From a virus: DNA of 21,503 nt. Below the pieces are notes generated by a model. The model ran no database searches. It had not been told where the DNA came from and saw only the letters and a list, made by a program, of their open reading frames with translations. Shown piece after piece: positions 8,503 to 13,320 of this stretch. A program made the position numbers and the translations under genes. The stretch spans positions 1 to 21,503 of the IMG/VR virus record IMGVR_UViG_3300044546_001170; one strand, 5' to 3'. Numbering within the stretch: position 1 is the first letter of the stretch; every line of letters starts with the position of its first letter.

Positions 8503-8985
8503 ATGAACTTTAACACTCTGGTTGCTTCGGCGGTTGTCACCCTCTCGCTCACTTCTATTGCTTCGGCTCAGTGGTCTAACAGCGGTGGTGGACTTAATAT
8601 TGGAATTGGCGGCTCATACGGTAAGTTCAAGGACAAGATTAGTGAGACAGGCGCAAACGGACAAACCGTTAGCCGCACTCGCACCGTTACGAACAACGAC
8701 TTTCGTTGGGGCGTTGGCATGGGTGGGTACTCCAACACCAACAACTACGGCGGTGGCGGCTATGGCTACGGCGGGGGTGGCTTCTACGGCGGTGGTGGCT
8801 ACGGTGCACAAGTAATGCCGTACTACGGTGGCGGCTACGGCGCACAAGTAATGCCGTACTACGGTGGTGGCTGTTATCCTGTCGTGGTTCCGTACTCCCC
8901 GTTCACTGGCACCTTCGGTAATCCGTGCTACGCTCCACAGGTGTTTGCTCCTGCGGCAGTCTGCCCTCAGTTTATTGTTCGTTAA
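8503..8985 (+). CDS. Secreted glycine/tyrosine-rich protein
   Basis: 160 aa. The ATG at 8503 has AAGGAG upstream and its own strong promoter. Residues 1-22 look like a Sec signal peptide with an A-S-A|Q cleavage site at 20-22, although the n-region lacks Lys/Arg. The mature part starts with strand-like NIGIGGSYGKF, then a Gly/Tyr-rich segment (GGGGYGYGGGG), two 12-residue repeats (GYGAQVMPYYGG), and a Pro/Cys-containing end with three cysteines. It resembles bacterial cell-surface Gly-rich proteins and may be a host-derived cargo gene that alters the cell surface after infection. No family is assigned. Confidence 0.75.
   Translation: MNFNTLVASAVVTLSLTSIASAQWSNSGGGLNIGIGGSYGKFKDKISETGANGQTVSRTRTVTNNDFRWGVGMGGYSNTNNYGGGGYGYGGGGFYGGGGYGAQVMPYYGGGYGAQVMPYYGGGCYPVVVPYSPFTGTFGNPCYAPQVFAPAAVCPQFIVR
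8797..8868 (+). repeat. Two tandem 36-bp repeats in the Gly-rich gene
   Basis: Units at 8797-8832 and 8833-8868 are nearly identical at DNA level, each coding GYGAQVMPYYGG. In-frame slippage would add or remove whole units. Confidence 0.9.
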
Positions 8986-9746: not shown

Positions 9747-11111
9747 TTAAACCAATAACAAATCAGCAGTCAAGATTGGTCTGTTCATCACCGATAGAAT
9801 GTCGGTGTTCAGACCAATTCTATTTTCCGAAACAGTTGTTTCGTTAAGATATATACGAACCCGATTCTGCTTCAGAGTTTCATCGGATGTAAACTTCACG
9901 GTGAATGAATGGGCATTAGATGCAGCAGTTCCTGCTCGGTACTTAACTAGTAGGGTTTCACCCGCAAACAGTGCTGCAACAGCAGTCTTTGTTTGCGTGT
10001 TTGGTGATGTAATCTCTAGAATATTTGTTCCTGTAGGAATAATTGAAGTGCTGCTGAATTCTGCTGTGGTGTAGTATTCGGTAATTGCACCAAGAGAAAT
10101 ACCTGTAACTACAAGCGGTGACCCTGTGTCTGTACTAGTACGACCAGTTAGTGTGCAGGGTACTGTTCCCAATACAACTCCCTGTTCGGTATCAGGAGAG
10201 AAGAACGAGAATGTTGTGCCTACGCTTGTGGCAGCACCAAAGGAATTCCACTGCTGTACAGCAGCCGCACTATCGTCTGCAAGAGATACTGTGGTTGCGG
10301 AACCAACCGAAACCAATACACGAATGCCTTCAGTCTGTATTGAGTTTGTGTCTCCGCCAGCAAGAAACTTACAGTTCTGTAGAGTACCACCACCAATAGG
10401 TGTGTTCTCGCTTTCCCATGAATAAAATTCAGTGATACTTGAGGAGTTTTCTTCTCCTCGAATCAGCACTGCCAACAGAGAAGATCCTCTGGAATCCCAA
10501 ATATTTAAGAATGGGGTAAGATCGAATTCCACGGTTGAGCCACTCCATGAACCGATTGGTATTATTTCGGATGCCGTTGGTTCTGCGTCACCGCCTTCGG
10601 TAGTCCATCCTGTTGTGGCGGCTTCTGATGGTTTGTACCAAGACACAGACGAGTCTATGGTGGTATCTAAAGGCAGCAGAACGGCTTCTAGAAGCCCTCC
10701 TGTGGTTCCTGCGGATCGTGTCAGCGTGAGAGTAGCATTGCCAATTGTGTACGGACTACCTGCGGTGTAGCCTTCTATAGTACTCACAGCAGCAGAAAAA
10801 TATTGGCGTGGATTCAGCAGTAGCACTGTTCTGAATTCTTGTGTTTTCGTTCCACCAACCTTCAACATATTTCTAGAACGATACAGTAAGTTGCCGCTGT
10901 CCCCACCTGTGTAGTATCCAGAAATTATTTTTGTTGGTTGCTGCACATCACTCAGTTCAATAAACTTGGAACTGAACGAATCAAATGCTTTTATCTTTAC
11001 TTCTGCTGAAAGATTCGTAATATAGGTATCGCTGTTTCCGTCTGCTCCATATACCGTTGCTCTCACGGTCTGTGAATTAGAGTAATTATTGCGATAACTA
11101 GAGTTAATCAT
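9747..11111 (-). CDS. Putative virion structural protein, unknown role
   Basis: 454 aa. The start is the ATG at 11111 with GGAG upstream (AATAGGAGCACT); the in-frame extension to 11204 would overlap the upstream gene and is rejected. The sequence is beta-rich with many Ser, Thr and Gly and few Cys, as in tail-associated proteins. It opens SSYRNNYSNSQTVRATVYG and has a middle resembling a carbohydrate-binding beta-sandwich (TVEFDLTPFLNIW, SLLAVLIRGEEN). The gene directly follows the adhesin-like gene (10 bases apart), so the two probably form one late operon and may assemble together. No known family is recognised. Confidence 0.7.
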   Translation of the reverse strand: MINSSYRNNYSNSQTVRATVYGADGNSDTYITNLSAEVKIKAFDSFSSKFIELSDVQQPTKIISGYYTGGDSGNLLYRSRNMLKVGGTKTQEFRTVLLLNPRQYFSAAVSTIEGYTAGSPYTIGNATLTLTRSAGTTGGLLEAVLLPLDTTIDSSVSWYKPSEAATTGWTTEGGDAEPTASEIIPIGSWSGSTVEFDLTPFLNIWDSRGSSLLAVLIRGEENSSSITEFYSWESENTPIGGGTLQNCKFLAGGDTNSIQTEGIRVLVSVGSATTVSLADDSAAAVQQWNSFGAATSVGTTFSFFSPDTEQGVVLGTVPCTLTGRTSTDTGSPLVVTGISLGAITEYYTTAEFSSTSIIPTGTNILEITSPNTQTKTAVAALFAGETLLVKYRAGTAASNAHSFTVKFTSDETLKQNRVRIYLNETTVSENRIGLNTDILSVMNRPILTADLLLV

Positions 11112-11121
11112 AGTGCTCCTA

Positions 11122-13320
11122 TTACGAAGCGTAGAACGAGAAGGTGATTCCTGTTCCCGTGTTGTGCGGTGCAAATCCAACCGAATACGGTGGGTAAAAT
11201 ACATTAATCATGTTAATGTTGTCTACTTCAAGGAATAGTTCATCTCCGTGATACATTACATAAGAATATGTTCCAGCAGTAAATCCGTATGTTGATGCGT
11301 CTGTTACGGAACCAACACACATAAATTCATTTTGTGATGAGTTGGCTCCTGTGGCAATACGCGAAACCTTGATACGAACACCACTTGCACAGGTAAATCC
11401 TGCGTTAGAGTTGTAGTCGGTTAGGTTCTTTGCCACATATCCCACAACATCTGTACGAGCCATGAACAACGGCTGTGTTGCGTTAGAATCAATTGCCACA
11501 CTAACCGAACCACTTGATACAGTATTTGCAAGAGTCTGCAACTGTGTGTTGACAGCATTCTTGACCAGTGAATAAATCGAGAGCGAATCGGTATAGTCAA
11601 AAGCACCAACGCTTACAGTTGGATCGTAGAGAGCCTTCTTTGCAGCAACCAAGAAGTCTGTGTTGGTTTTTACTTGAGCAATAGTGGCATTCACTGTGGA
11701 TGTTGGAGTATCAAGATTTGCCAATTCGATTGGCATAAATCCACCCGAATATCCTTTGACGATTACTGGTCCGTTGAGTGTGTCTCCTGCAACCCACAGA
11801 CCAACCACTGCTGCACTTGATCCCGCTACGGGAACAGGATTGAATGCTTCTTGTGAAATGCCAATGCCTGTGCTGAATGTAGCGTAGGCATTAAAAGAGA
11901 ACCCTGAGTTAACAAGGTACATATTCACTGCGGCACCACACCAACCTGCACCCGTAGTACCACTAACTCGTGTTAGTGTTCCTGTTGGGCTTACTGCGGC
12001 ATTCATGTATGTTGGAACAGTAGATAGAGACAGGCTGTCTGCTGCTCCCTGACCAACAATAGTAACGGTGTCTATGGTGTAGTCTAGATTACGAATATCA
12101 AGATCAGCAGCAGACACCGTGATGCCAGCAGAAGTCTTGATGTTTACATTAAGAGCATTGGATTCTGCATAGATGGGATCAACACCTGTTCCCGTGAATC
12201 CAAATAGTCCTGTTGAAACGGTGGAAGCAGTTCCTCCACCGTATACTGTGATGTTATCTGTGGCTGCGGTAATACCGCGAATACTAAAGTTGGAAGCCTG
12301 AACATAAACAGCCGTTGCGCCTGTTACTCCGAATATTCCAAGATTAGAGAAGGACGATACTGTTACAGGAAGAGGAGCACTTACGGTAATACCAATGGGG
12401 TATCCGCTTGCAATGCCTTGAATTCCTACAAAGTCTATTCCAGCGGTACTGCCGAGAGTGGCTCCACCGTATAGATTTCTAATACTGAAACTACTACCAG
12501 CAACATTGAGCGTTCCAACCGTGATGCCTACAGCCACTCCTCCTGATACGCCAACAACGGTAAGAGATGTTCCTGTGATGCCTACAATAGTTGTGGCAAG
12601 ACTATAAAATCCAGATGGAGCAAGAAATTCATAGTTTGCCCATGAGCCACAAATACCCACTGGAAGTGGAGATGAAGCCTGAACATACACAGCCGTTGCA
12701 CCTGTTACTCCGAATATTCCAAGATTCGATAAGGACAGACTAGCGAAAGACGATACAGTTACAGGAAGTGGGGTATTTAAAGTAATACCAATGGGGTATC
12801 CGCTTGCAATGCCTTGGATACCCACATAGTCTATTCCAGCGGTACTTCCAAGAGTTTCTCCACCGTATAGATTTCTAATACTGAAACTGCTACCCGCAAC
12901 ATTCAGTGTTCCAACTGTAATGCCTACAGCCACTCCTCCTGATACACCAGCAACATTCAGTGTTCCAACCGTGATGCCTACAGCCACTCCTCCTGATACA
13001 CCAGCAACATTCAGTGTTCCAACTGTAATGCCTACAGCCACTCCTCCTGATACACCAACAACGGTAAGAGATGTTCCTGTGATGCCTACAATAGTTGTGG
13101 CAAGACTAGTAATTCCAGATGGAGGAAGAAAATCATAGTTTGCCCATGAGCCAGAAAGACCCACTGGAAGGGGCGCGGACTCACTTGCATATATTATTGT
13201 GTCGTTTAGACCGTAGGCAATCTTTACAATCTGATGATGTGCGGTATTGACATAATCGCTGGCTATGGTATAACTAATACCATCAGTAACAATTTCGTAG
13301 TTGTCGCTAGTCGCTGCCAT
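11122..13320 (-). CDS. Repeat-rich adhesin or tail-fibre-like virion protein
   Basis: 732 aa. The ATG at 13320 has a good ribosome site (GGAGAAGCAA). The N-terminal 45 residues contain HHQIVKIAYGLND, followed by PLPVGLSGSW; HxQxVKxAYG and PLPV motifs recur in phage virion proteins. Residues 49-342 are two copies of a 130-170-residue module with short Gly/Val repeats (VSGGVAVGITVGTLNVAG). The middle continues with Ala/Ser/Thr strands, and residues about 620-732 form a C-terminal domain (YVMYHGDELFLEVDNI). Beta-solenoid or fibre folding is likely. Host recognition is inference; no known family is recognised. Confidence 0.7.
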   Translation of the reverse strand: MAATSDNYEIVTDGISYTIASDYVNTAHHQIVKIAYGLNDTIIYASESAPLPVGLSGSWANYDFLPPSGITSLATTIVGITGTSLTVVGVSGGVAVGITVGTLNVAGVSGGVAVGITVGTLNVAGVSGGVAVGITVGTLNVAGSSFSIRNLYGGETLGSTAGIDYVGIQGIASGYPIGITLNTPLPVTVSSFASLSLSNLGIFGVTGATAVYVQASSPLPVGICGSWANYEFLAPSGFYSLATTIVGITGTSLTVVGVSGGVAVGITVGTLNVAGSSFSIRNLYGGATLGSTAGIDFVGIQGIASGYPIGITVSAPLPVTVSSFSNLGIFGVTGATAVYVQASNFSIRGITAATDNITVYGGGTASTVSTGLFGFTGTGVDPIYAESNALNVNIKTSAGITVSAADLDIRNLDYTIDTVTIVGQGAADSLSLSTVPTYMNAAVSPTGTLTRVSGTTGAGWCGAAVNMYLVNSGFSFNAYATFSTGIGISQEAFNPVPVAGSSAAVVGLWVAGDTLNGPVIVKGYSGGFMPIELANLDTPTSTVNATIAQVKTNTDFLVAAKKALYDPTVSVGAFDYTDSLSIYSLVKNAVNTQLQTLANTVSSGSVSVAIDSNATQPLFMARTDVVGYVAKNLTDYNSNAGFTCASGVRIKVSRIATGANSSQNEFMCVGSVTDASTYGFTAGTYSYVMYHGDELFLEVDNINMINVFYPPYSVGFAPHNTGTGITFSFYAS
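12295..13176 (-). repeat. Two-copy segmental duplication inside the adhesin-like gene
   Basis: Copy 1 is 12676-13176 (residues 49-215) and copy 2 is 12295-12672 (residues 217-342). Both run from PLPVG-x-x-GSWANY to GVTGATAVYVQA and are almost identical in protein, with many identical DNA blocks. Copy 1 has two more 54-bp units than copy 2. Confidence 0.9.
12896..13052 (-). repeat. Three 54-bp tandem repeats
   Basis: Units start at 12896, 12950 and 13004 and differ by only a few bases. Each codes 18 residues containing GVSGGVAVGITVGTLNVA. The near-identity suggests recent slippage, and the length keeps the reading frame. Confidence 0.93.

What the first reader, a model, noticed from the sequence alone, without database searches (positions are those of the whole stretch)
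12295..13176. Recent repeat expansion in the adhesin-like gene
A module of 130-170 residues is duplicated and one copy contains three nearly identical 54-bp units. Near-identity at DNA level means recent events. Frame-preserving repeats in host-contact proteins can change length or specificity quickly.
Basis: partly seen in the sequence, partly recalled or inferred. Interest (0 to 1): 0.5.

Follow-up and report, generated by a model that had tools for sequence, protein, structure and literature searches.

The report
Expanding repeats in a phage attachment-type gene
A virus of bacteria carries a gene, probably for a surface fibre that touches its host, whose middle has been copied in some strains while its tail end is swapped between strains, which is a known way for phage attachment proteins to change.

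Summary
The repeat is real. The gene (11122-13320, minus, 732 aa, 'P0001') holds a 127-132-residue module twice; the upstream copy has three 54-bp units (12895-13056), identical as protein with 1-3 silent differences, the other has one (12499-12552). The window is a fragment of a T4-like phage. Of 57 complete relatives (window + 56 IMG/VR contigs) 46 have one module (566-629 aa) and 11 are expanded (732, 786 or 817 aa), so expansion is derived. All 11, and a one-module form (L012/L013), belong to one cluster with gp32 about 98% identical in DNA, so length varies among close relatives. 'Recent' is only relative: the window's array is unchanged in 5 of 5 other complete contigs of its haplotype. 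A second process was missed: in 20 of 38 pairs with gp32 differing by under 3% (5 of 7 clusters), the last 132 residues differ by 16-36% in DNA. C-termini have been exchanged, and their divergence tracks the downstream gene P0002, not gp32. Best reading: a virion adhesin evolving by in-frame tandem duplication plus C-terminal swapping, as reported for T4-type fibres. Function and fold are not shown; both AlphaFold2 models were unusable, and no named family or phage record matched significantly.

The parts
11122..13320 (-). P0001, 732-aa repeat-bearing protein, proposed virion adhesin (function inferred)
   Evidence: open frame; 71 relatives in viral contigs, in each the gp33 and gp32 genes lie just upstream
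13168..13320 (-). N-terminal segment aa 1-51, conserved in single- and multi-module forms
   Evidence: alignment; coordinates
12676..13167 (-). module 1 (aa 52-215), the inserted copy
   Evidence: absent from single-module relatives; repeats; module limits are approximate
13003..13056 (-). 54-bp unit 1 (aa 89-106)
12949..13002 (-). 54-bp unit 2 (aa 107-124)
12895..12948 (-). 54-bp unit 3 (aa 125-142)
12298..12675 (-). module 2 (aa 216-341), aligned with the single module of other phages
   Evidence: alignment; divergence tracks gp32 (rank correlation 0.66, 0 of 2000 permutations as high)
12499..12552 (-). single 54-bp unit of module 2 (aa 257-274)
11125..11520 (-). C-terminal segment aa 601-732, exchanged between close relatives
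9747..11111 (-). P0002, 454 aa, next gene downstream; divergence tracks the P0001 C-terminus; weak DNRLRE-domain match below cut-off

Best explanation
P0001 is most likely a fibrous virion adhesin (tail-fibre or receptor-binding type) of an uncultured T4-like phage. Shown: its N-terminal half is made of repeated short beta-type motifs; in one near-species cluster a 127-132-residue block was duplicated in tandem and further 18-, 45- and 56-residue pieces were added; its C-terminal third is exchanged between phages whose neighbouring genes are nearly identical, and it varies together with the next gene, P0002. Inferred: the repeats form a fibre shaft that tolerates added units; duplications arise by slippage or unequal crossing-over between short similar stretches coding for (A/P)(V/I)GIT, which lie at both ends of the 18- and 45-residue units; the C-terminal part (perhaps with P0002) is the host-contacting end; length change and end swapping alter which hosts are reached.
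For: Family: 57 complete members, 46 with one module and 11 expanded. Lengths fit whole pieces: W = base+132+2x18; L010 = base+127+2x18+45; L006-L009 = base+132+18+45+56 (my arithmetic from the lengths and offsets). Same cluster, gp32 97.7-98.3% DNA identity to W while P0001 aligned codons are 87.3, 83.5 and 81.4% (L006/L007, L010, L012/L013). Identity drops at the start of P0001 (98-100% to 85.6-93.3% between adjacent 150-bp blocks, three haplotypes). C-terminal exchange: 20 of 38 near-gp32 pairs differ by 16-36% over aa 601-732 (12 of 16 after collapsing near-identical rows), in 5 of 7 clusters; L016 and L017: gp32 0.3% apart, C-terminus 32%. Each of four segments rejects the trees of the other three (AU p at most 0.0016, 38 sequences; IQ-TREE warned that 2000 replicates are few). 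P0002 tracks the C-terminus (rank correlation 0.57, 0 of 2000 permutations as high) and not gp32 (0.09, 382 of 2000). GIT-coding stretches at unit ends. Location among T4-type tail and late genes.
Against: No experiment and no homologue of known function: no PHROG or NCBIfam match for P0001 and only sub-cut-off Pfam matches, no significant match in 50,697 phage records, no PDB sequence match for the single sequence at E<=1 and only chance-level ones for the profile. Structure prediction failed. Expanded forms were found in only one cluster, so repeat expansion is not a general habit of the family. The neighbouring gene P0003, which need not contact the host, also diverges strongly in some of the same phages (84.4% in L006/L007) and varies in repeat number, so divergence alone does not prove host contact. 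Linkage of C-terminus and P0002 may be simple adjacency.
Confidence: 0.58

Rival explanations
1. Tolerated, nearly neutral repeat turnover: the protein is a structural fibre or decoration whose length does not matter, and slippage adds and removes units without effect on host range.
For: All differences among the three 18-residue units are silent; repeat number is constant inside haplotypes; the neighbouring P0003 also gains and loses a 66-bp unit among near-identical contigs.
Against: Does not by itself explain repeated C-terminal exchange in 5 of 7 clusters or the joint variation with P0002. It can hold for the repeats while the swapping is selected.
Confidence: 0.25
2. P0001 is a virion protein other than an adhesin, such as a capsid decoration or neck whisker, diversified by escape from other pressures or by hitch-hiking with P0002.
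For: No test places it on the tail; gene order beside gp33/gp32 and away from any recognised tail-fibre gene in the window.
Against: The next gene P0002 has a weak DNRLRE-domain match (19.8 bits, cut-off 34). A separate variable C-terminus with conserved upstream part resembles receptor-binding proteins (inference).
Confidence: 0.12
3. Assembly artefact: the tandem copies were created or mis-counted by short-read assembly.
For: All sequences are metagenome contigs; no reads were available. A 162-bp array can exceed read length.
Against: The same array was assembled in 5 other contigs with different IMG sample numbers; units and modules carry distinguishing differences; the frame stays open in all 57; 817-aa form seen in 4 contigs.
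Confidence: 0.04
4. Diversification by a reverse-transcriptase retroelement (DGR).
For: A variable C-terminus in a phage attachment-type gene.
Against: No RVT_1 (PF00078) in 0 of 10 records searched, 22.6-149.9 kb each, all possibly incomplete; control genomes rang in 3 of 14. Variation is spread over hundreds of bases with block structure, not limited to one short variable stretch.
Confidence: 0.01

Closest known systems
T4 tail-fibre adhesin small-domain duplications (Tetart et al. 1996, title seen in the reference list of PMC6957217; paper not read)
   Same: In-frame duplication of a small part of a fibre protein in a T4-type phage.
   Different: There an effect on host range is in the title; here no phenotype, no sequence match to known adhesins, and the duplicated part lies in the N-terminal half.
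[quoted passage not shown] 1998, title seen in reference lists; paper not read)
   Same: Exchange of the distal part of an attachment gene between close relatives, with a conserved upstream part and alternating conserved and variable blocks.
   Different: Unrelated sequence as far as tested; motif here would be (A/P)(V/I)GIT rather than the glycine motifs reported for gp38 (passage in PMC6027323); specificity change not shown.
DNRLRE-domain proteins (NF033679)
   Same: P0002 matches residues 39-159 of 164 weakly.
   Different: 19.8 bits against a cut-off of 34; concerns the neighbour, not P0001.
Triple beta-spiral or beta-solenoid fibre shafts (recalled)
   Same: Units of 18 residues with alternating hydrophobics and glycine turns.
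   Different: No usable model; resemblance is by eye only.

Membership tests
T4-like phage (host genome of the gene) | T4-type late-transcription, replication, head and baseplate genes | tested here: met
   gp33 (phrog_254), gp32 (phrog_224), baseplate hub (phrog_150), tail tube (phrog_45), end protector (phrog_429), head closure (phrog_218), tube cap (phrog_230)
T4 gp37/gp38 adhesins | sequence homology to known members | tested here: not met
   no PHROG match, no significant tblastn match in the phage records, best E 9; profile against PDB gives chance-level matches only
T4 gp37/gp38 adhesins | recombinational swapping of the distal part | tested here: met
   20 of 38 near-identical gp32 pairs, 5 of 7 clusters; incongruent trees
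T4 gp37/gp38 adhesins | binds a host receptor and sets host range | not testable with these tools
   needs bench work
beta-solenoid / triple beta-spiral fibre | regular stacked beta fold | tested here: inconclusive
   AlphaFold2 mean pLDDT 38.6 (window protein) and 37.8 (L011), monomers; strands predicted in the 18-aa array only at pLDDT about 50
DGR target gene | reverse transcriptase and template repeat nearby | tested here: not met
   0 of 10 records with PF00078; records incomplete; template repeat not searched
strain-level variable-number tandem repeat | repeat number differs among otherwise identical strains | tested here: not met
   constant in 6 of 6 contigs of 732 aa and 4 of 4 of 817 aa; differs only between haplotypes

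The most novel reading that the evidence does not exclude
An unnamed family of T4-like phage virion proteins, with no match in the libraries searched here, diversifies in nature by two coupled processes without a retroelement: tandem duplication of shaft units at a recurring (A/P)(V/I)GIT junction, and exchange of a two-gene cassette made of its C-terminus and the adjacent P0002, which together form the host-contacting device.
Probability: 0.3. Interest if true: 0.55.

Novelty: new member of a known kind. Interest (0 to 1): 0.38.

Why it matters
If right, it gives a natural series of adhesin alleles (566, 732, 786 and 817 aa) in nearly the same phage background, so the effect of fibre repeats and end swapping on host range in uncultured freshwater- or marine-type phages could be tested directly. 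It also gives markers for following allele turnover in metagenome time series. The general principle is already known from T4-type phages.

Tried and rejected
Structure: two AlphaFold2 jobs (window protein with 41 rows; single-module L011 with 38 rows) gave mean pLDDT 38.6 and 37.8; I ran no fold search on them because the tool warns that low-confidence models give meaningless matches. Named relatives: tblastn of P0001 at E 1e-5 and at 10, of P0002 at E 1, and of P0003 at 0.01 against phage records gave none or chance matches. PHROG scan of 38 relatives gave only weak scattered matches (best 0.0073). Two named cyanophages, S-SRM01 and SynMITS9220M01, have no match to the P0001 profile. Genome contigs: 40 pattern matches, none a relative. 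Cyanophage origin: no psbA (PF00124) in 8 records, so the host stays unknown. DGR: no RT in 10 records.

Rejected as worded: 'recent' expansion in the sampled population, since the array is constant inside its haplotype. Also considered independent duplication in the three expanded haplotypes; the head of module 1 (LSGSWANY / VSGSWANY) and of module 2 (CGSW) are alike across the three, which favours one shared duplication or its spread by recombination. The 45-residue piece is shared by L006-L009 and L010 but not W, and the two extra 18-residue units by W and L010 but not L006-L009, so gain and loss or recombination must have recurred.

Limits: pair counts are not independent; near-identical contigs may come from the same lake or series (sample origin not known here). 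P0002 comparison used the 28 of 43 rows with a complete P0002 frame; the other 15 were dropped. The gp32 comparison used 43 of 44 distinct P0001 coding sequences (L018 dropped, gp32 cut). Of 71 loci, 15 carry only part of P0001 and were left out of the counts of 57.

Full report
What is there. The finding lies in a 732-aa frame on the minus strand, 11122-13320. Around it are T4-type genes: gp33, gp32, a baseplate hub protein, a tail-tube protein, an end protector, a head-closure protein and a tube cap; gp32 is closest to those of Kyanoviridae cyanophages at about 55% among the best-ranked records. The record is a 21,503-base virus fragment. No Pfam, PHROG or NCBIfam family reaches significance for P0001.

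Repeat anatomy. A 54-bp unit occurs three times at 12895-13056 and once at 12499-12552. The three tandem units are identical as protein; pairwise they differ at 1, 2 and 3 of 54 bases. The larger module recurs at offsets of 132 and 168 residues, the difference being two units. A 54-bp self-match of 54/54 compares with at most 36/54 in 100 codon shuffles. Outside the units the two modules are 86-90% identical in DNA and carry 8-9 amino-acid differences per stretch compared, so they are not near-identical.

Relatives. Two scans of viral contigs gave 71 loci. Fifty-six carry a complete gene; with the window that is 57, of 40 distinct proteins. Forty-six are 566-629 aa with one module: their best internal self-match scores are at most 101, against 271 or more in the expanded forms. 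Eleven are expanded: 732 aa (window and L001-L005), 786 aa (L010), 817 aa (L006-L009). Single-module proteins align with module 2. The expansion is therefore derived.

How recent. L001-L005 differ from the window at 0 or 1 of 2196 bases (at most 2 among themselves), with the same array. The array is older than this spread. The 786- and 817-aa haplotypes, and the single-module L012/L013, have gp32 97.7-98.3% identical in DNA to the window's, yet P0001 is only 81.4-87.3% identical over aligned codons. Blocks of 150 bp fall from 98-100% to 85.6-93.3% at the start of P0001. So length differs among close relatives, not within a haplotype. The three units of the window are closer to one another (1-3 differences) than to the units at the same place in L010 (4, 6 and 4), which fits later homogenisation or separate expansion.

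C-terminal exchange. Among 43 distinct coding sequences with full gp32, 38 pairs differ by less than 3% in gp32; 20 of them differ by 16-36% over aa 601-732. After collapsing near-identical rows it is 12 of 16 pairs; the exchange is seen in 5 of 7 clusters and not in 2. L016 and L017 differ by 0.3% in gp32, 1.2-4.7% over the first parts of P0001 up to aa 457, and 32% at the C-terminus. Trees of gp32, the N-terminal part with module 2, the middle and the C-terminus reject each other (AU p at most 0.0016, with a warning on few replicates). In the C-terminal tree L010 falls with L014 and L022 (support 100 for the three, 69 for L010 with L014) and L013 with L015 (99), whereas gp32 puts L014 with L011 (100).

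The neighbour. For 28 rows with complete P0002, P0002 distances follow those of the P0001 C-terminus (rank correlation 0.57; 0 of 2000 permutations as high), weakly those of aa 458-600 (0.30; 2 of 2000), and not module 2 (0.13; 267 of 2000) or gp32 (0.09; 382 of 2000). Module 2 follows gp32 (0.66; 0 of 2000). The exchange tract therefore seems to run from the 3' part of P0001 through P0002. Adjacency alone could cause this.

Mechanism. Shown: in-frame tandem duplication and exchange. Inferred: crossing-over or slippage at stretches coding for (A/P)(V/I)GIT, present at the ends of the 18- and 45-residue pieces; a fibre shaft made of the repeats; a host-contacting C-terminus. AlphaFold2 could not test the fold.

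Known parallels. Titles of two papers by Tetart and colleagues, seen only in reference lists, name duplication of a small domain of the T4 fibre adhesin and swapping of adhesin specificity by recombination between conserved motifs. P0001 behaves like these; it is not a member of those families by any sequence test made here. I did not search the literature for this protein family itself.

Against the reading. The neighbouring P0003 also diverges in some of the same phages (84.4% in L006/L007, 81.2% in L012, but 99.8% in L010) and varies in a 66-bp unit among near-identical contigs, so variability here is not limited to a proposed adhesin. Expanded forms come from one cluster only.

Noticed in passing
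17172-17304 in P0003 (14706-17564, minus): A 66-bp tandem unit has two copies in the window, L002, L004, L005 and L010 but one in L001 and L031, although L001 is about 99.9% identical elsewhere: a strain-level repeat-number difference more recent than that of the finding.
   Followed up: partly
15557-16055 in P0003: Further 33-, 99- and 126-bp tandem repeats coding for glycine/alanine-rich segments; L006-L009 and L012 have other arrangements.
   Followed up: partly
8503-8985 (plus): 160-aa frame with tandem GGGYGAQVMPYY-type repeats (36-bp period) and a signal-like start (translation).
   Followed up: no
9747-11204 (minus): The longest P0002 frame overlaps the P0001 end by 83 bases; the ATG at 11111 gives a 454-aa protein starting just after P0001.
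   Followed up: partly
L017, L029, L036, L050, L028 between P0001 and the P0002 relative: A gap of about 780-1360 bases separates the two genes, room for another gene or a longer frame; not examined.
   Followed up: no
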